Origin: an uncultured Bacillota bacterium | GTDB taxonomy: Bacteria; Bacillota; Clostridia; Christensenellales; Borkfalkiaceae | NCBI GenBank assembly: GCA_949290895.1 | Contig: CASETU010000050.1 | Span: forward strand, 1-34,186 | Length of the DNA stretch: 34,186 nucleotides | Direction of reading: 5' to 3' | Shown: piece by piece, positions 6,916-22,403 of the stretch | Numbering within the stretch: position 1 is the stretch's first letter | Layout of the letters: every line of letters begins with the position of its first letter | The notes under the pieces: generated by a model | Database searches by the model: none | What the model saw: the letters and a program-made list of their open reading frames with translations, nothing else | What the model was told of the DNA's origin: nothing | Translations under genes and position numbers: made by a program

Positions 6916-8936
6916 GAATTGATTTCTTGCAGCCTTTGTACAAACAGTTCGGCTTTTTCTCCTTTCAGATAATCGTTGTAATATATTCTGTTAATATGAG
7001 AAATTTTATTCAGCAAAACGCTCGCTGTTTCTTCGACTTGAGCCAAATACGTTTCGTCGACGCTCTTATCCTGCCAGATAACGTTGTTTAAGTTGTAAAA
7101 ATACATTTTATCGGTTATAAATACATCGTATGCCCTGGAATAAAGCACGGAGGTTTTTTCGGAAAATATGCTGGTTCCGTAAAGCATGTTATCAAAGTAT
7201 TTAATGCCGAGCAAATCGTATATCGTAGGCACGATGTCCGCGGTGCACGTGAATTTTTCGATAATCCTTTCGGAAAGGGGCGTATCCGTTAATTTGTTGC
7301 CTACGCGAATCATCAACGGGACGCGGAAAAGGTCTGTGTAATTGCGCGTAGTGTCGGTATCGGTCAAGTCCTTAATATAATCGGAAAGCTCGTAATAGTA
7401 GGCATTGTGGTCTCCGAAAAGAACGATGACTGTATTTTCGATGAGGGGAACGCCTTTATCGTCGGTTGTGTTTTTCAGATAATCGAATATTTCGCCCAGC
7501 GCTTTGTCCAGCTCCATTGCCGCCGCAACATAATTGCGGAAAGCATATTTGTTGTCGTAATCTTTATCGTTTTCGTCCGGCATGGGGCAGGTACCGTATT
7601 CGTCTAAAATGGCGTAATATTCTTTCAGGTTTTCGCGCTCTGCGTATTGCCCGTGCATGGTGATTGTGGAAATATGCGTATCGAAACGGCGATCGGACGG
7701 AAACATCAGTTCTTTGCAAAGCTCGATCATATCGGAATCGAGGTTTCTTTCTCCCGATTCGGTATAATCTTTATAGTTGCCGCTTATACTTTCGGAATAA
7801 GCGATCATTTCTTCGTTTGCGTAAAATTTGTCTACCTTGACAGAGTTAAGATAATAATCGTGTCGGTTGTAAAAATCGCTTAAGCCGTTATGGAAATAGC
7901 CTGATTCCGCTCCTGTAAGCGCTTTGAGCACCTGCGGGGAGGAAAAGGGAATGGAATTTTCGGGAAAAGTATAATTTACGTAAGCATCTGTCGGATAACA
8001 GCCCAACAAAGACAGGTTTTCCGAAATATCGGTCTTTTCTCTGGAATGGAAATTGTCGGCAACGTAACTTGTGTCGTAAAGTTCATAAAGGTTCGGGAAT
8101 AATTTTCTCAGCGTTTCCTCGTCGGCTTTTAAGCCGTTGGGGTATCTTTCCGTATCGCTTATGAATGCAAACCATTCTAAGCTTTCCGCTAATATCGTTA
8201 CTGTGTTCATGCCGGAAGCTTCGCCGAATTTTTCCGTTTCTTCCGTTACCGTGCCGAAAATGTAATCTTCAAGTTCTTTTGTGTCGCCTAATTCTACGTT
8301 GTTGAAAAACAGACCTTTATAAAGTTGCGTTACGAAATTCCCCAGAATGCCTTGTTTTGTATAGGAATTTTCCGTGTTTTCGTAAAGTTTATAAGACATA
8401 TCGTCGGATTTGTTGCGCCCGACAAAGTAAGCAAGCGTTCCCTGCGCGGCAAAAATAACGCAAAGGAGAATGCTGATGACCACGGTGGAGGAAACTTTTT
8501 TTTGTAAAAGCGGCGCTCTGTCTTTTTCGTAACTTCCGAGGACGATATAAAGTCCGATGACGAAACAGGAAACGAACAGAAATGCAAAATTCGGGCTGGT
8601 CGCTTCTATGGTGCCCATGCCGTCCTTTGCGAGATTGAACATTTCGAAGTCGAATATCGTGCCGGAGGTAAGTGTATACATTAAAATAAACGTCAAATCG
8701 ATTAAAGCATGGGCTATCATGAAAGCCGCGGAAAGCCAAAATCTTGTTTTTTGATCGGGGATAAGGCAGAGGATTGCCGTTGCAAGCGCAATCAAAGTCA
8801 GAAATATTCCCGGTCTGCTGATTTTCAGTTCGTTCGACACGAGAAAAGTCGCGAAAAACTCCAGCAAAATCGATATGATAACGTAAAGAAAAATAAATAC
8901 GTTGTTTCTCAAAAACGATGTGATTTTTTCTGTCAT
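6912..8936 (-). CDS. LtaS-type membrane sulfatase-fold phosphoglycerol transferase
   Basis: The 674-residue protein has five N-terminal membrane helices (about 10-34, 42-60, 67-90, 116-136 and 149-172) and a large extracellular alkaline-phosphatase/sulfatase domain. Residues that match LtaS: E251 in LAES, the catalytic Thr T302 in SREKTDISEN, STITMHGQY, and the metal-binding FGDHN (D509, H510). LtaS enzymes transfer glycerol phosphate from phosphatidylglycerol to growing lipoteichoic acid; some relatives are primases or modify other glycans. I start at the ATG at 8936, 7 nt after AGGTG; a GTG three codons upstream overlaps that site. It follows a membrane-protein gene and precedes a HAD phosphatase in one operon. 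Confidence 0.88.
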   Translation of the reverse strand: MTEKITSFLRNNVFIFLYVIISILLEFFATFLVSNELKISRPGIFLTLIALATAILCLIPDQKTRFWLSAAFMIAHALIDLTFILMYTLTSGTIFDFEMFNLAKDGMGTIEATSPNFAFLFVSCFVIGLYIVLGSYEKDRAPLLQKKVSSTVVISILLCVIFAAQGTLAYFVGRNKSDDMSYKLYENTENSYTKQGILGNFVTQLYKGLFFNNVELGDTKELEDYIFGTVTEETEKFGEASGMNTVTILAESLEWFAFISDTERYPNGLKADEETLRKLFPNLYELYDTSYVADNFHSREKTDISENLSLLGCYPTDAYVNYTFPENSIPFSSPQVLKALTGAESGYFHNGLSDFYNRHDYYLNSVKVDKFYANEEMIAYSESISGNYKDYTESGERNLDSDMIELCKELMFPSDRRFDTHISTITMHGQYAERENLKEYYAILDEYGTCPMPDENDKDYDNKYAFRNYVAAAMELDKALGEIFDYLKNTTDDKGVPLIENTVIVLFGDHNAYYYELSDYIKDLTDTDTTRNYTDLFRVPLMIRVGNKLTDTPLSERIIEKFTCTADIVPTIYDLLGIKYFDNMLYGTSIFSEKTSVLYSRAYDVFITDKMYFYNLNNVIWQDKSVDETYLAQVEETASVLLNKISHINRIYYNDYLKGEKAELFVQRLQEINS

Positions 8937-8945
8937 AAATAACAC

Positions 8946-9629
8946 CTATAATATGATAACGAGCAAAGCGGTAATAAGAGTCAAAATCAATCTTTTTTCA
9001 CTTAAAACATAAACTATCCCGTAAAAAAGATAGAATATCCAGTATGCGTAAATCAGTATAACGTCTGCCGCGATAAAAAGTTCTGCTACGCCGCAAGTTG
9101 CAAAAAAGAGCAATCCGCCCAAAGGAATGCGTTGTATGTATTTTGCGGGAATGACCGTTTCGAAAAAATTCTGCAATAAAGCGATTGTCAAAACCGCGCA
9201 AAGACTGCGGAAAAGAAAAGGCAGATATTCTTTTGAAAGCGTTGCGATGACTTTTTCCGAAGTGGAACTGGTTCCGACTTCCGCGATTACGGGAAGGTCG
9301 AATCCGATTGCCCAGCAAGAAAAGAAGATCGCCGCAAACGTCAAAACGAAAATCATCAGTGCGTATTTAGGGTGTAAACGCTTTTGCTTTTTTGAAAACA
9401 GCGATAAATTTGCATATTTTTTTGCCGAGAAACATACGGCAAAGAATGCTGCTATATAAACGGCGCATTTTATGAGAAAAACTGCCAAATATGCAAGTTC
9501 GCCGAAAGCTGGGGAAAATGCGTTGTAAAGACAGTCGTTTAGCAATTCCGGAAAGTACGTCGCAAAAATCAAAATGCTTGCGAGCATCAAAATAATAAGA
9601 GGGCGATTTTTTTCGTAAGTTTGTTTCAT
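8946..9629 (-). CDS. multi-pass membrane protein of unknown function
   Basis: I do not recognise a family. The 227-residue product has about six hydrophobic segments (about 9-26, 42-68, 88-108, 135-155, 168-187 and 190-226) and a basic loop KKYANLSLFSKKQKRLH near residues 69-85. No clear catalytic motif is visible. GGGAG precedes the ATG by about 6 nt. Its TAG stop lies within the ribosome binding region of the LtaS-like gene, so the two are translationally linked and it may assist or flank the LtaS-like enzyme at the membrane. Confidence 0.75.
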   Translation of the reverse strand: MKQTYEKNRPLIILMLASILIFATYFPELLNDCLYNAFSPAFGELAYLAVFLIKCAVYIAAFFAVCFSAKKYANLSLFSKKQKRLHPKYALMIFVLTFAAIFFSCWAIGFDLPVIAEVGTSSTSEKVIATLSKEYLPFLFRSLCAVLTIALLQNFFETVIPAKYIQRIPLGGLLFFATCGVAELFIAADVILIYAYWIFYLFYGIVYVLSEKRLILTLITALLVIIL

Positions 9630-9800
9630 TTGAACTCCCGTATAAAGTTTGGGGTTTCCGCAGACGTGTGATTTTGCGGGTAATAAAAAGTGTTCTTTCG
9701 TTTTGTGCTAATATATTTTATAATGATTTATGAAAATAATCAAATGATTTTGCGGATTTTTTGAAGTTGATAGCTTAAATCGAATGATTTTTCTGCAAAA

Positions 9801-9861
9801 TTACCATAAATTCTCTAAATTGCAAATTTACGGTAAATGTTTTGTTTTTGTAAACAAAACA
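9801..9861. repeat. two adjacent inverted repeats in the nptA upstream region
   Basis: The first repeat has 12-bp arms with one mismatch (9801-9812 and 9825-9836, TTACC...GGTAA). The second has perfect 10-bp arms (9838-9847 and 9852-9861) around a TTGT loop. They follow each other directly. They could be operators or weak terminator-like hairpins. The 9630-9990 gap otherwise contains the Pho-like repeats, the phosphate-operon promoter and AT-rich DNA with no gene. Confidence 0.5.
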
Positions 9862-9902
9862 CCGAATATATTGATACATAATTTAGAAGAAAGCGGTTAA
9901 TA

Positions 9903-9963
9903 TTACATTTTTATTACATTTGCGGGGTGAATAAACTTGAATAAATTTTACAATTATATTACA
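9903..9963 (+). promoter_or_regulatory. Pho-box-like direct repeats
   Basis: TTACA occurs at 9903-9907 and 9914-9918, and again at 9948-9952 and 9959-9963. Within each pair the offset is exactly 11 bp, the periodicity of PhoP boxes (TTAACA-like repeats) in Bacillus. The first pair is upstream of the -35 and the second lies between -35 and -10. The downstream genes encode a phosphate cotransporter and a two-component system, which makes PhoP binding likely but unproven. Confidence 0.55.
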
Positions 9964-9965
9964 AT
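9937..9965 (+). promoter_or_regulatory. promoter of the phosphate operon
   Basis: TTGAAT (9937-9942), 17 nt and TACAAT (9960-9965) form a moderate promoter. Transcription would start near 9972, about 19 nt before the ATG. The imperfect -35 fits an activator-dependent promoter. Confidence 0.5.
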
Positions 9966-9990
9966 GTAAGAAAAATAAAAGGAAAAATTT

Positions 9991-11628
9991 ATGGATTATC
10001 TGGCGGCGTTATTAGCTTTATTGGGCGGGCTCGGCGCATTTTTGATGGGCGTTGCGGCATTGTCGGACAACACGGAAAAGCTTGCAAACAGCAAAATCAA
10101 GGACCTGTTCAACAAAACTTCTAAAAACAAACTGGTCGGCGTGGGGATAGGGACGGTCACCACGGCAATCGTGCAAAGTTCGGGTATCACCACCGTTATG
10201 ATCGTCGGTTTGGTCAATGCGGGGATCATGTCTCTTTTTCAGGCGACTACGATGATCATGGGGGCGAACATAGGTACGACCATCACCGCACAGCTCGCTT
10301 CTTTAAGTCAGTTCGACTTTATGATGTTTGCTTTGCCGCTCGCTTTTATCGGCATGATGATTTACATGATCGCCAAAAAGGAAAAATACAAGACCGTCGG
10401 ATATATGCTTGCGGGCTTGGGACTGATTTTCGTTGGACTTGATTTCATGAGCGCCGCGATCAATCCCATCAAGAGCAATCCCGAAGTCAAGGAACTTTTT
10501 ACCGCGATTAAAAATCCTTTTTTATTGTTGTTTATCGGCTTTGCGCTGACGGCTTTGACGCAAAGCAGTTCTGTTGTTACTTCCATTTTGATCGTCCTTG
10601 CGACCGACGGGTTGATCGTCGGCGGGGGCGGGAATTCCGTTTTGTACGTCATTCTCGGTACGAATATCGGCTCCTGCGTGACGGCGCTTATTTCTTCTAT
10701 CGGTACGAATAAAAATGCTCGCCGAGCAAGTTTGATACACTTGATGTTCAATACGTTCGGTTCGGTGATATTTTTCATATTTTTCACCTGCTGGCCCGGA
10801 TTTATGGACGCTACGTTCGTCCGCTGGTTCAGCGGTGCGCCCGGAACGCAGATAGCTATGTTCCATACGGCGTTTAACGTGATTTGTACGATTTTGTTCC
10901 TTCCGTTTACCGCTTTGTTTGTCAAACTTTCGCAACTCATCATAAGGGATAAAAAGGAAGAAGCCGAAGCGGAAAGCGAAAAGATACTTGACGAACGTAT
11001 GTTGCCTACTCCGGGCGTCGCTTTGGATGCTACGGGGAAAAGCGTTTTGCACCTTCTGGATATGTCGATGGAGTCTTTGCAAATCGCGTTCGACGGTTTC
11101 AAAGATAAAGATGAAAGCGCGGCAAAGCGCGTGGAAGAAAATAACGAACGCGTGATGGAGCTCAGCCGTTATATCACGAACTATCTTATTAAAGTCTCTT
11201 CGCAGAACATCGGTATCAACGAAGAAAAGCTGATTTCCGCCATGCACAACAACGTAGGGGATATCGTGCGTATCAGCGAACTTGCGGAAAACGTGACAAA
11301 GTACACCCGTAGGACGGTGAAAGATAATTTGGGATTTTCGTCTTACGTCAATTCAAAACTTGAAGAAATGCTTGAAAATATCAAAGAACTTTCTTCCCTG
11401 ACGAAGAAATTCGTTACGGAAAAACAGTTTACGCTTATCAAAGATATTGACGAAGCGGAAGATAAAATCGACGCTATGCGCAAAAAGCTGCTGAACGACC
11501 ATATCGCGCGCCTCAACAGCGGGGAGTGCAAGCCCGAAAGCAGCAGCGTCTTTATCAATCTCGTATGTAATTTGGAGAGGGTTGGCGACCACGTGAACTA
11601 TATCGCTCATACCTACGTGGATTTATAA
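9991..11628 (+). CDS. Na/Pi cotransporter family protein with C-terminal PhoU domain
   Basis: The 545-residue protein joins two inverted NptA-type repeats, each with the diagnostic QSS motif (QSSGITT at 62-68 and QSSSVVTS at 191-198), to a cytoplasmic helical PhoU-like domain (about 345-545). It moves inorganic phosphate across the membrane with sodium; the PhoU part probably couples transport to phosphate signalling. GANIGTT (91-97) and GTNIGS (about 223-228) are the matching repeat signatures. AAGGA precedes the ATG. The response regulator starts 1 nt after its stop, so transporter and two-component system are made together. The Pho-like repeats upstream suggest phosphate-starvation control. 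Confidence 0.92.
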   Translation: MDYLAALLALLGGLGAFLMGVAALSDNTEKLANSKIKDLFNKTSKNKLVGVGIGTVTTAIVQSSGITTVMIVGLVNAGIMSLFQATTMIMGANIGTTITAQLASLSQFDFMMFALPLAFIGMMIYMIAKKEKYKTVGYMLAGLGLIFVGLDFMSAAINPIKSNPEVKELFTAIKNPFLLLFIGFALTALTQSSSVVTSILIVLATDGLIVGGGGNSVLYVILGTNIGSCVTALISSIGTNKNARRASLIHLMFNTFGSVIFFIFFTCWPGFMDATFVRWFSGAPGTQIAMFHTAFNVICTILFLPFTALFVKLSQLIIRDKKEEAEAESEKILDERMLPTPGVALDATGKSVLHLLDMSMESLQIAFDGFKDKDESAAKRVEENNERVMELSRYITNYLIKVSSQNIGINEEKLISAMHNNVGDIVRISELAENVTKYTRRTVKDNLGFSSYVNSKLEEMLENIKELSSLTKKFVTEKQFTLIKDIDEAEDKIDAMRKKLLNDHIARLNSGECKPESSSVFINLVCNLERVGDHVNYIAHTYVDL

Positions 11629-18782: not shown

Positions 18783-18817
18783 AAATGTAAGAAAATTACT
18801 GACGATTTTTTACATTT
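18783..18817 (-). terminator. weak AT-rich terminator at the end of upp
   Basis: An A/T-rich stem (18783-18794 with 18806-18817) overlaps the upp stop codon. On the minus strand it is followed by a short U-run. Its low GC content makes it a weak candidate. Confidence 0.4.
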
Positions 18818-19457
18818 ACTTCGTGCCGAATATCCTGTCGCCTGCATCGCCGAATGCGGTAACGATGTATCCTTTATCATTGAGCGGCGCGTCGGCATAA
18901 TGTGCTGCAAAAATCTTAACGTCGGGGTGTGCGGTCGCCACGCGCTTTAAGCCTTCGGGGGCGGCGATAAGCGATAAAAGCTTGATGCGCTTAAAACCGC
19001 GTTCCTTAATGAAAGAAATAGCTGCAGCGGCGCTGCCGCCCGTCGCGAGTGCGGGATCTACGACGATGACTTGCCCGTCGGTGCAATCTTTCGGCAGTTT
19101 GCAGTAATATTCGTGCGGCTGTAAAGTTTCTTCGTCGCGATAAAGTCCGATATGACCGATGCGCGCTTTTGGAAAAAGTGCGGTCAAACCGTCCACCATG
19201 CCGAGCCCCGCGCGCAAAATGGGCACGATGACGATTTTATCGTCGATGACGGGCGACTGAAAAGAGGACAGCGGCGCGTCTATCTGTACGTTTTTGGTTT
19301 TTAAATCGCGAAACGCTTCATAACCCATAAGCATAGCAAGTTCGCTTACGATTTCGCGGAATTCTTTGGTGTTGGTGTTTTTATCGCAAAGATGTGTTAT
19401 TTTATGCGCGATGAGCGGGTGGGAAAACAAAGTAACGTTTTTCATGTAATCTTCCAT
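18816..19457 (-). CDS. upp: uracil phosphoribosyltransferase
   Basis: Upp converts uracil and PRPP to UMP. The 213-residue protein shows [12 protein letters not shown], the PRPP loop [14 protein letters not shown] and the C-terminal uracil-binding [16 protein letters not shown] lies 7 nt before the ATG. It faces pyrR divergently, 129 bp apart, and uraA and a TudS-like gene follow, so this is a uracil salvage neighbourhood. Length matches the family. Confidence 0.96.
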
Positions 19458-19486
19458 AGTAAAACTTCCTTGAGTTATTTCTTATT

Positions 19487-19515
19487 AGTGTACTATAAAA
19501 AAGATAAAATTTCAA
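19487..19515 (-). promoter_or_regulatory. upp promoter
   Basis: On the minus strand TTGAAA (19515-19510), 17 nt and TACACT (19492-19487) precede the ATG by a leader of about 22 nt. Confidence 0.5.
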
Positions 19516-19538
19516 GTTAATTTTCGGAAAATATAAAA

Positions 19539-19568
19539 TTGACAAATATGTTTTATGTGTGCTAAAAT
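19539..19568 (+). promoter_or_regulatory. pyrR promoter
   Basis: TTGACA (19539-19544), 18 nt and TAAAAT (19563-19568). The leader would be only about 12 nt, too short for a PyrR attenuator. Confidence 0.6.
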
Positions 19569-19586
19569 TTACATACGGAGTTAATT

Positions 19587-20117
19587 ATGAAATTAAAAGC
19601 AAAAATTTTGGACGAACAGGCTATCAAACGGGCACTTGCGCGTATTTCCTATGAAATCGTCGAGCATTGCAAATCGGTTGAAAATCTTCTGCTTGTCGGC
19701 ATAAGGACGCGTGGCGTACCGCTTGCAGGTGCGATTGCCGAAAATATCGGCGGTTTAATCGGGGATAAAGTCGATTTTATAGAACTCGACCCGACTGCAT
19801 TTCGCGATGACGTTGAAAACGACGGTGTGGGCGAAAGCGGATTGAAAAAAGGTGTAACGCTGGGGAAAGATGTTATTCTTGTAGACGACGTGTTGTTTAC
19901 GGGGCGTACGGTGCGTGCGGCAATTGAGGCTGTGTTTGACTGCGGCAGGGCAAACAGTATACGCCTTGCTGTCCTTGTAGATCGCGGACACAGGGAATTG
20001 CCCATAAAAGCGGATTTCGTCGGTAAAAACGTTCCGACTTCCCGCCGCGAGGAAGTTGTTGTGCATGTAGGTTCTGTGGACGGTGAATTCGGCGTTTATA
20101 TTTACGAAAAAGAATAA
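19587..20117 (+). CDS. pyrR: PyrR bifunctional pyrimidine regulator / uracil phosphoribosyltransferase
   Basis: PyrR binds pyr mRNA leaders when UMP is plentiful and has weak uracil phosphoribosyltransferase activity. The 176-residue protein carries the PRPP motif VILVDDVLFTGRT (96-108), GIRTRG near the start, and VDRGHRELPI, all typical of PyrR rather than Upp. CGGAG precedes the ATG. It is monocistronic: a strong terminator follows and no pyr biosynthesis genes are in the window, so its regulatory targets lie elsewhere or include the uraA leader. Confidence 0.95.
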   Translation: MKLKAKILDEQAIKRALARISYEIVEHCKSVENLLLVGIRTRGVPLAGAIAENIGGLIGDKVDFIELDPTAFRDDVENDGVGESGLKKGVTLGKDVILVDDVLFTGRTVRAAIEAVFDCGRANSIRLAVLVDRGHRELPIKADFVGKNVPTSRREEVVVHVGSVDGEFGVYIYEKE

Positions 20118-20150
20118 CTTAAAATAGCAGAATATTTTTTGAATATATGT

Positions 20151-20177
20151 AAAAAGCCCGTTAAAAACGGGCTTTTT
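20151..20177. terminator. bidirectional terminator between pyrR and uraA
   Basis: A perfect 12-bp stem (20151-20162 with 20166-20177), 3-nt loop, A5/T5 ends. It serves both convergent genes. Confidence 0.9.
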
Positions 20178-20190
20178 GTTTAGTTGATGT

Positions 20191-21717
20191 TTATTTGTTT
20201 GTCTCACTTTCCGCTGGTTGATTTTCGGAAAAAGACGTCGTGTTTTCATCGATGGTGGAGATGTTTGCCGACAAACCGTCTTTAGAGGTGTCGTCACGAT
20301 CTTTCCTGCCGATATTCACGATTAGGTTGGTCAGGATACCGACGATGAGCGCGGTCGCGATAGACGTGATGGAGAGGAGCGCTTCGCCCGTCGTTTTGTT
20401 CGTGCCGAAATTGAGTACCAGTGCGCCGATTCCGCAGACGAGAATGGAACTTACGACAAAGAGGTTTTTGTTGTCGCCGAGGTCGACTTCTTTGAGCATC
20501 TGCAAGCCGCTGACGGCGATAAAGCCGTAAAGCGCTACGCACGCGCCGCCCATAACGCATTTGGGAATGGACTCGATGACCGCCACGAATGGGGTGAAGA
20601 AGGAGAGGAGCATACAGCCGATCGCCGCGCAGATAATGGTGATGATAGATGCGTTTTTTGTGATTGCCACGCAGCCGATCGATTCGCCGTACGTTGTGTT
20701 CGCGCAACCGCCGAAGATCGCGCCGACGATGGAGCCGAGTCCGTCGCCGAGGAGCGTTCTCGACAAACCGGGGTCTTTGATGAGGTCTCTTTCGATGATT
20801 GTGCTAAGGTTTTTATGGTCGGCAATATGCTGAGCGAGTTCCACGATGCCGATGGGCGCGAAAAGTAACGCAAGATTGCCTATCGCCACGCCGTTGATGG
20901 GTTCATATTCCCCGCCGTGCTGAATGCCCATTAGGAAAGTGAAGTCAGGCAGAGCGAAGAAGCTTTCAAAGGTGATTTTACCGAAGGCGTTTTTGAAAGG
21001 GGTGAAATCCAAAAGCTGCATATATTTTACATCCAAAGCCTGTCCGATTAACGTTAAGATCAGGGCGAGCGCATATCCCGCGCCGATACCGATGATGAAG
21101 GGGATAAGTTTTAAGGTTTTCGAGCCCTTGACGGAAGTGAGAACGATGACGAAGAAGGAGACGAGACCGCAGAAGATGGAGAGCAAGTTGTAATCATCGA
21201 CCATCAGATAATAAGAATTATTATAGATGTCTTTAAATTCTTCGACGTGTTGCATTGTGTTGCTCATGAGCCATTGTGTTGCAGTACCCGACAAGCTGAG
21301 CCCGATGATTGCGACGATCGGCCCGATGATGACTGCAGGCAAAAGCTTGTTGAGCCAGTTTGTTCCGACGAAGCGAATGACGAGGGATATAATGAGGTAA
21401 ACTCCTCCGGCAAACGCGACGCCGATGATCAGCCCCCAGTAACCGTAGTTTTGAGCAGCCGCCGCACCCATTGCGCCGAGGAATGTGAAGGAACTTCCCA
21501 AGAAGACGGGGCTTCTTCTTTTTGTACATAAGATGTAGACGAGTGTGCCGATGCCCGCACCGAAAAGCGCTGCTGCGGGGTCCATCGTAAGACCTTGCGA
21601 AGAGATGATGATGGGGACGAGAAGCGTTGCCGCCATGATAGCGATCATCTGCTGGAACGCGAATACGATGATTTTCCCGAATGTGGGCTTGTCGCTGACG
21701 CCGTAAATGAGTTTCAT
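20191..21717 (-). CDS. uraA: uracil/xanthine permease (NCS2 family)
   Basis: The 508-residue protein has the UraA/NAT membrane layout with more than ten hydrophobic segments, an early FAFQQMIAIMAATLLVP block, and the helix-10 substrate region around FGGCANTTYGESIGCVAITK. Placement beside upp and pyrR favours uracil over xanthine. A hydrophilic tail of about 40 residues follows the last helix. I start at the ATG at 21717, behind AAGGAG at 10 nt spacing. An in-frame extension of 27 codons runs through the leader terminator and is rejected. The long leader suggests transcription attenuation. Confidence 0.9.
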   Translation of the reverse strand: MKLIYGVSDKPTFGKIIVFAFQQMIAIMAATLLVPIIISSQGLTMDPAAALFGAGIGTLVYILCTKRRSPVFLGSSFTFLGAMGAAAAQNYGYWGLIIGVAFAGGVYLIISLVIRFVGTNWLNKLLPAVIIGPIVAIIGLSLSGTATQWLMSNTMQHVEEFKDIYNNSYYLMVDDYNLLSIFCGLVSFFVIVLTSVKGSKTLKLIPFIIGIGAGYALALILTLIGQALDVKYMQLLDFTPFKNAFGKITFESFFALPDFTFLMGIQHGGEYEPINGVAIGNLALLFAPIGIVELAQHIADHKNLSTIIERDLIKDPGLSRTLLGDGLGSIVGAIFGGCANTTYGESIGCVAITKNASIITIICAAIGCMLLSFFTPFVAVIESIPKCVMGGACVALYGFIAVSGLQMLKEVDLGDNKNLFVVSSILVCGIGALVLNFGTNKTTGEALLSITSIATALIVGILTNLIVNIGRKDRDDTSKDGLSANISTIDENTTSFSENQPAESETNK

Positions 21718-21885
21718 TTGTGCATATCTCCTTAAATAATTTTTAACAGAATAAAAGCCCTGCTCTACGAAAATAAAGCAAGGCTGCAAGCACAGCATAA
21801 AAGCGCTTAAAAAACGCCGTCGTCCGTAAAAAATATTGCGAGTATCTTGCCGGTATCTCCGTACCGCATTAAAGATATTCCATTT
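21718..21885 (-). promoter_or_regulatory. uraA leader, candidate cis-regulatory RNA of unknown type
   Basis: The leader of about 168 nt can fold a proximal helix AATAT/ATATT enclosing a GGTA/TACC hairpin, then ends in the intrinsic terminator at 21757-21784. A GCAAG in the upstream part can pair with CTTGC around the terminator's 5' arm, a possible antiterminator. I find no canonical PyrR-binding loop and no purine riboswitch core. PyrR remains the nearest plausible regulator. Confidence 0.45.
21757..21784 (-). terminator. terminator hairpin inside the uraA leader (attenuator)
   Basis: On the minus strand an 8-bp stem with one G-U pair (21784-21777 with 21764-21757) and a 12-nt loop is followed by a U-rich run (21756-21750), about 35 nt upstream of the uraA ATG. 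It lies within the transcribed leader, so it should act as an attenuator. Confidence 0.6.
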
Positions 21886-21891
21886 GCATGA

Positions 21892-21920
21892 ATTGTATCA
21901 CATCTTAAAAATAAAGTCAA
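21892..21920 (-). promoter_or_regulatory. uraA promoter
   Basis: On the minus strand TTGACT (21920-21915), 17 nt and TACAAT (21897-21892). Its -35 lies 18 bp from the -35 of the divergent TudS-like gene. Confidence 0.7.
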
Positions 21921-21986: not shown

Positions 21987-22403
21987 ATGAAAATACTTGT
22001 AAGCGCATGTTTGTTAGGCGAAAACTGCCGATATAAAGGCGACAACTGCAAAAACGAAAAGGTAGTCGCGTTGAAGGAAGGAAACGAACTTATTGCCGTT
22101 TGTCCCGAAGTTCTCGGCGGGCTTTCCACTCCGCGTGCGCCTGCTGAACGGGTGAAAGAAAAGGTTTTGGCAAACAACGGCAAAGACGTTACCGAAAACT
22201 ATAAAAAAGGCGCGGAAATCGCTTTGGAAATCGCAAAAGAAAACCATATAGATTATTGTATATTTAAAAGCAAAAGTCCGTCTTGCGGTTGCGGTATGAT
22301 TTACGACGGAACTTTCAGCGGAAAAACGGTTTGCGGAAACGGCGTAACGACAGAACTTTTCATAAAGAACGGTTATCGGGTAGTCGACGAAAATTCGATA
22401 TAA
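21987..22403 (+). CDS. DUF523 family protein, TudS (2-thiouracil desulfurase)-like
   Basis: The 138-residue protein has the DUF523 signature: SACLLGENCRYKG (C8, C14), CPEVLGG (C39) and KSPSCGCG (C100, C102). Characterised DUF523 members (TudS) hold a [4Fe-4S] cluster on three conserved Cys and strip sulfur from 2-thiouracil to give uracil. It is divergent from the uracil permease and close to upp and pyrR, which fits a role in salvaging thiolated uracil, for example from modified RNA. The function here is inferred from family and neighbours. AAGGAG lies 7 nt before the ATG. No clear terminator follows. Confidence 0.85.
   Translation: MKILVSACLLGENCRYKGDNCKNEKVVALKEGNELIAVCPEVLGGLSTPRAPAERVKEKVLANNGKDVTENYKKGAEIALEIAKENHIDYCIFKSKSPSCGCGMIYDGTFSGKTVCGNGVTTELFIKNGYRVVDENSI

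What the first reader, a model, noticed from the sequence alone, without database searches (positions are those of the whole stretch)
21718..21885. Unidentified attenuator leader before uraA
A TTGACT-N17-TACAAT promoter starts a leader of about 168 nt with possible helices and an intrinsic terminator just upstream of the ribosome binding site. I find neither a canonical PyrR-binding loop nor a purine riboswitch core. It may be a divergent PyrR site or a new pyrimidine-sensing RNA.
Basis: partly seen in the sequence, partly recalled or inferred. Interest (0 to 1): 0.55.

Follow-up and report, generated by a model that had tools for sequence, protein, structure and literature searches.

The report
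PyrR attenuator controlling a uracil transporter
The stretch before this uracil transporter gene carries a slightly altered form of a well-known RNA switch that most likely shuts the gene off when the cell has enough pyrimidine, and a standard RNA catalogue misses it because a few letters differ.

Summary
In detail: on the minus strand a TTGACT-N17-TACAAT promoter (21920-21892) starts a 168-nt leader with a 13-bp terminator (21785-21756) before the uraA ribosome site. A covariance model built without the window and without genus-mate G051 finds it at E 3.8e-7 in the window, the only credible hit in the held genome. The same loop precedes uraA, pyrR, pyrC and upp in relatives. It occurs in 42 of 151 family genomes, 41 of which encode PyrR. 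pyrR lies next to uraA in the window. Half-transcribed, the leader is predicted to refold into a 16-bp antiterminator joining the loop to the terminator's 5' arm and loop.

Best reading: PyrR-dependent transcription attenuation, in which UMP-loaded PyrR holds the loop so that the terminator forms. It departs from the published ARUCCAGAGAGGYU consensus at the top of the upper stem: A-U closes the loop instead of C-G. That probably explains why Rfam RF00515 misses it. No direct uracil riboswitch is needed. Binding and termination are inferred, not measured.

The parts
21892..21920 (-). promoter TTGACT-N17-TACAAT with TG before the -10
21718..21885 (-). 168-nt untranslated leader of uraA
   Evidence: transcription start inferred from the -10
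21843..21878 (-). PyrR binding loop (anti-antiterminator): lower stem UAUCUU/AAGAUA, internal loop UAAUG/GC, upper stem CGGUA/UACCG, hexaloop CGGAGA
   Evidence: R2 model built without this sequence, E 3.8e-7; covariation in relatives
21856..21861 (-). CNGNGA hexaloop (CGGAGA)
   Evidence: C, G, G and A in 29 of 29 aligned sequences (chosen with that motif)
21846..21863 (-). 5' side of the predicted antiterminator (UACGGAGAUA + GGCAAG): loop and 3' arm of the binding loop
   Evidence: prefixes of 118-124 nt; duplex -17.6 against -9.3 for shuffles
21766..21782 (-). 3' side of the predicted antiterminator (CUUGCU + UAUUUUCGUA): 5' arm and loop of the terminator
21756..21785 (-). intrinsic terminator, 13-bp stem, U-rich tail after it
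21728..21733 (-). ribosome binding site AAGGAG
   Evidence: read directly
20191..21717 (-). uraA, uracil/xanthine permease family (target gene)
   Evidence: PF00860 above its cut-off; NCBIfam uracil permease model matched below its curated cut-off
19587..20117 (+). pyrR, the presumed trans-acting regulator
   Evidence: NF003549 217.6 bits, cut-off 138; PDB PyrR chains, E to 1.4e-53
18816..19457 (-). upp, uracil phosphoribosyltransferase, same strand as uraA

Best explanation
The leader is a PyrR-dependent transcription attenuator. RNA polymerase first makes the binding loop. With low UMP, PyrR is off the RNA; once the 5' arm of the terminator is made, it pairs with the loop and 3' arm of the binding loop (16 bp antiterminator), and uraA is transcribed. 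With high UMP, UMP-PyrR holds the binding loop closed, the 5' arm is free to pair with its own 3' arm, and transcription stops before uraA. Uracil uptake is thus matched to pyrimidine supply. Shown here by computation: the loop, its covariation, the mutually exclusive pairings, the link with pyrR and pyrimidine genes. Inferred from B. subtilis: PyrR binding, UMP as effector, actual termination.
For: A model from 27 relatives' loops without the window or G051 hits 21878-21843 at E 3.8e-7 with filters off and gives the only credible hit in the 1.72 Mb held (86% complete; E 1.9e-5, next 2). At E <= 1 the same model lands on the RF00515 site in 14 of 15 RF00515-positive loci of the class (5 of 15 with a hit at E <= 0.01; the miss is L123). 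Covariation: 91% of cells paired against 37-49% when slid; 8 of 12 pairs with double changes (1 of 500 shuffles as high); covariation score reached by 0 of 500. Of 46 family hits, 30 came as loci; 28 of those 30, the window included, have a pyrimidine gene next: uraA 7, pyrR 16, pyrC 4, upp 1 (pyrR positions; NCBIfam check of three). 41 of 42 loop genomes encode PyrR against 43 of 109 others. Within the genus, G000 and G051 have both; G005, G023 and G038 show neither, although G005 and G023 keep uraA. In 28 leaders the loop-terminator duplex averages -14.4 against -8.1 for shuffles, 28 of 28 below their own shuffle mean, 22 at or below 0.05. In the window, P(loop) falls from 0.86 to 0.05 when the terminator 5' arm and loop are made (0.64 with those shuffled) and returns to 0.84 with the full terminator.
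Against: The top of the upper stem, which a review names as needed for PyrR binding (PMC7430163, passage read), does not carry the published ARUCC/GGYU letters. RF00515 does not match. One loop genome, G033 (81% complete), shows no PyrR. 43 of the 84 PyrR genomes have no R1 hit, though that search used strict filters. The number of pair types beyond the first is no better than shuffles (72 of 500 as high), and the picking regex required the lower-stem letters and four upper-stem pairs. The refolding test is not uniform: P(loop) falls by more than 0.3 in 17 of 28 and recovers in 15 of 28; two pyrR leaders (L012, L014) behave the other way; 2 of 30 leaders gave no terminator. A narrower duplex test (3' arm against 5' arm only) reached 0.05 in 11 of 28. 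No expression or binding data.
Confidence: 0.92

Rival explanations
1. A protein-independent riboswitch that binds uracil or UMP directly and controls the same terminator.
For: G005 and G023 keep a promoter, a leader hairpin and a terminator before uraA although no PyrR was found there.
Against: The motif tracks PyrR (41 of 42 genomes) and stands before pyrR itself in relatives. Its anatomy is that of the PyrR loop. The leaders of G005 and G023 have lost the hexaloop and the UCUUUAA arm, and their loop-terminator pairing is not clearly better than shuffles (0.10 and 0.17).
Confidence: 0.04
2. PyrR binds but acts on translation or mRNA stability rather than on termination.
For: PyrR sites that act on translation are recalled for mycobacteria (recalled, no call).
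Against: A strong terminator lies between loop and RBS, and the loop is predicted to pair with the terminator arm.
Confidence: 0.02
3. A constitutive promoter-terminator arrangement; the loop is a relic without function here.
For: The held genome shows only one loop; the contig with its pyrB (C92) carries none.
Against: The hexaloop and both stems are intact, in contrast to the PyrR-less genus-mates, and an intact pyrR frame lies next door.
Confidence: 0.02

Closest known systems
Rfam RF00515, PyrR binding site (B. subtilis pyr attenuators; members of the same class here, L111-L125)
   Same: Lower stem with CUUUAA on the 5' side and AAG on the 3' side, asymmetric internal loop, 5-6-bp upper stem, CNGNGA hexaloop, downstream terminator
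   Different: Upper stem letters: AGUC/GGCU or close, closed by C-G, in the RF00515 members read; GGUA/UACC closed by A-U here. Window not matched at E <= 10
S. [quoted passage not shown]
   Same: A PyrR element in front of a uracil transporter gene, with UMP-PyrR proposed to promote termination
   Different: Here the uraA site is the only credible one in the held genome; pyrR is convergent with uraA and no loop was found before it

Membership tests
PyrR binding loop (RF00515 kind) | CNGNGA hexaloop | tested here: met
   CGGAGA at 21861-21856
PyrR binding loop (RF00515 kind) | lower stem, purine-containing internal bulge, upper stem | tested here: met
   6 bp, UAAUG/GC, 5 bp
PyrR binding loop (RF00515 kind) | ARUC...GRYU letters at the top of the upper stem | tested here: not met
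   GGUA/UACC in the window; A-U closing pair in 27 of 29 model rows, G-C in 2
PyrR binding loop (RF00515 kind) | score above the Rfam gathering cut-off | tested here: not met
PyrR attenuator | antiterminator overlapping both loop and terminator | tested here: met
   predicted pairing
PyrR attenuator | pyrR encoded in the genome | tested here: met
   19587-20117
PyrR attenuator | UMP-dependent binding of PyrR and termination | not testable with these tools
   needs purified protein and in vitro transcription
purine riboswitch or another Rfam family | match to the covariance model | tested here: not met
   nothing near a gathering score

The most novel reading that the evidence does not exclude
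PyrR has two recognition codes: PyrR proteins of this organism's family and of Erysipelotrichaceae relatives read a loop closed by A-U (with A.G-closed and 5-nt CGAGA-loop versions), while another clade of the class reads the C-G-closed loop, and protein and RNA changed together. When PyrR was lost in two genus-mates the uraA leader kept its terminator but its loop turned into a different hairpin, perhaps for another regulator.
Probability: 0.2. Interest if true: 0.5.

Novelty: new variant of a known kind. Interest (0 to 1): 0.3.

Why it matters
PyrR sites in many uncultured Clostridia and Erysipelotrichaceae appear to escape the current Rfam cut-off; a model made here finds them. The natural swap of the closing base pair, which follows the PyrR tree in this sample, offers a way to find which PyrR residues read the loop; PyrR chains are in the PDB, and I recall no solved PyrR-RNA complex.

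Tried and rejected
Rfam scan with E up to 10 on the leader: nine weak unrelated matches, no PyrR. The first regex pass read minus-strand G loci on the wrong strand and was too strict; redone on both strands. MAFFT put gaps outside the internal loop, so I padded short rows with N as gap holders.

PyrR residues that separate A-U from C-G loops: position 40 separated the 35 and 9 proteins completely (K/R in 28 of 35 against Q/H in 9 of 9), but the ancestral PyrR chains in the PDB, which I recall as Bacillaceae, have K there while the consensus given for B. subtilis is C-G, so I dropped it as the determinant. The clean split on the tree (one change) is partly due to how the loci were collected: C-G loci came through RF00515, A-U loci through my own searches; 22 of 66 proteins had no loop assigned by the script and were left out of the count, and the A-U group includes 5-base loops.

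Further copies of the altered hairpin of G005/G023: a pattern with up to 2 mismatches over 398 family genomes matched in 37 (the backward control in 5 of the rows shown); only G005's own match lies before uraA by its coordinates, and the others were not examined. Papers: searches show no description of the A-U variant in their listings, and I read passages of four papers only. A review and two primary papers on PyrR that I asked for by id are not held, so absence from print is not shown.

Full report
WHAT IS THERE. The leader lies on the minus strand. A TTGACT-17-TACAAT promoter with TG before the -10 sits at 21920-21892. The transcript should start near 21885. A 13-bp terminator stem occupies 21785-21756, AAGGAG lies at 21733-21728, and uraA starts at ATG 21717. 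The 168-nt leader folds at -45.1 kcal/mol against -35.7 for shuffles, z -2.63. No Rfam family reaches its gathering score in the window. RF00515 (PyrR) is absent from the held genome at E <= 0.001, and the leader gives no PyrR match at E <= 10.

THE BINDING LOOP. At 21878-21843 the RNA reads AUAUCUUUAAUGCGGUACGGAGAUACCGGCAAGAUA. It folds as UAUCUU/AAGAUA below, UAAUG/GC unpaired, CGGUA/UACCG above, and CGGAGA in the loop. This is the anatomy of the PyrR binding loop as printed in the RF00515 consensus. [quoted passage not shown] The loop fits; the letters at the top of the upper stem do not.

IT IS NOT CHANCE. I collected uraA loci from 151 family genomes (matches in 99, 30 loci taken) and from genome contigs (80 loci kept of 102 relatives). 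A regex for the motif gave 32 sites, 30 after removing repeats, from which 29 distinct rows were aligned. These rows were picked with TTTA, CNGNGA and AAG in the regex and at least four contiguous upper-stem pairs, so those features are conserved by construction. On this alignment 91% of cells pair against 37-49% when slid. Eight of 12 pairs change on both sides, six of six in the upper stem; the covariation score is reached by 0 of 500 shuffles, the number of further pair types by 72 of 500. A model without the window and without G051 (R2, 27 rows) scores the window site 43.2 bits, E 3.8e-7 with filters off. In the held genome (86% complete) it is the only credible hit (E 1.9e-5, next 2). At E <= 1 the same model lands on the RF00515 site in 14 of 15 RF00515-positive loci of the class (a hit at E <= 0.01 in 5 of the 15), so I take the two motifs as one kind. 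Over the 80 contig loci, R1 hits 39 at E <= 0.01, 12 of them not in the training rows.

WHAT IT CONTROLS. R1 hits 42 of 151 family genomes at E <= 0.01, at 46 places. For 30 of these places loci were given. In 28 of the 30, the window included, a pyrimidine gene comes next: uraA 7, pyrR 16 (followed by uraA, pyrC or pyrB in most), pyrC 4, upp 1 (with pyrR positions). NCBIfam confirmed one PyrB and two PyrC; the other PyrB and PyrC calls are by eye on the same motifs. In two (L134, L154) the script found no open frame; L154 lies before a uraA fragment (G033). PyrR matches 113 of 151 genomes at E <= 0.001, 84 of them strongly; the other 29 are weak and look like other phosphoribosyltransferases. 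41 of 42 loop genomes have strong PyrR against 43 of 109 others, Fisher p 3e-12, not corrected for relatedness. Within the genus, G000 and G051 have PyrR and loop. G005, G023 and G038 show neither, and G005 and G023 keep uraA.

HOW IT WORKS. Folding growing transcripts of the window, the loop stands (P 0.79-0.87 from 46 to 112 nt) until the terminator's 5' arm and loop are made. At 118-124 nt it is replaced by a helix in which UACGGAGAUA pairs with UAUUUUCGUA and GGCAAG with CUUGCU. At 130 nt the terminator wins and the loop returns. In 28 of 30 leaders where a terminator was found, the duplex averages -14.4 against -8.1 for dinucleotide shuffles; 28 of 28 are below their shuffle mean and 22 are at or below 0.05. 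P(loop) falls by over 0.3 in 17 of 28 and recovers in 15 of 28; L012 and L014 go the other way. A narrower test reached 0.05 in only 11 of 28. This three-way exclusion is the B. subtilis scheme: UMP-PyrR stabilises the anti-antiterminator (PMC7430163; compare PMC6296669; passages read). I infer binding, the effector and termination.

HOW IT DIFFERS. Among distinct loops with the CUUUAA and AAG flanks in the fetched loci, 41 six-base loops close with A-U, 15 with C-G, 8 with A.G and 3 with G-C; there are 9 five-base CGAGA loops. All 15 C-G loops are in loci that RF00515 selected. On a PyrR tree of 66 proteins the two types need one change (35 A-U, 9 C-G, 22 unassigned). Residue 40 separates them but fails on ancestral PyrR chains, so no determinant is claimed.

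THE PyrR-LESS GENUS-MATES. In G005 and G023 uraA is followed directly by upp with no pyrR between them. The leader keeps promoter and terminator, but the hexaloop and UCUUUAA arm are gone and a GCGG...CCGC hairpin stands there. Its pairing with the terminator is not clearly better than shuffles (0.10 and 0.17). Two sequences cannot tell decay from re-use.

VERDICT. Most likely a PyrR attenuator of uraA with a variant binding loop that Rfam misses. The mechanism is known; the variant and its spread are the new part.

Noticed in passing
window 21987-22400 (+): A 2-thiouracil desulfurase (PF04463, E 2.5e-45) is divergent from uraA; the start of a similar gene faces uraA in G005 and G023 (read by eye). 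A thiouracil-to-uracil enzyme beside a uracil transporter.
   Followed up: partly
window 18816-21717: pyrR lies antisense between uraA and upp; in G005 and G023 uraA and upp are adjacent on one strand and pyrR is absent.
   Followed up: partly
L006, L057, L068, L069, L075, L076, L079, L085, L086, L095, L096, L173, L176: Binding loops with a five-base CGAGA loop in place of the CNGNGA hexaloop, 9 distinct sequences.
   Followed up: no
L007, L009, L044, L048, L062, L082, L083, L087, L099, L101, L105, L144: Hexaloops flanked by A and G, so that the closing pair would be A.G, 8 distinct sequences.
   Followed up: no
L185 (G005) and L032 (G023), before uraA: PyrR-less leaders with a terminator and a GCGG..CCGC hairpin in place of the binding loop.
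   Followed up: partly
G000:C92 (L183) about 7588-11624: The genome's own pyrB with neighbouring open frames that by eye look like pyrD, pyrF and pyrE has no binding loop found by R1 or R2; its regulation is unknown.
   Followed up: partly
L040:1609-1803 (-): 6S RNA (RF00013, 60.5 bits) about 1.7 kb upstream of the uraA leader in that relative.
   Followed up: no
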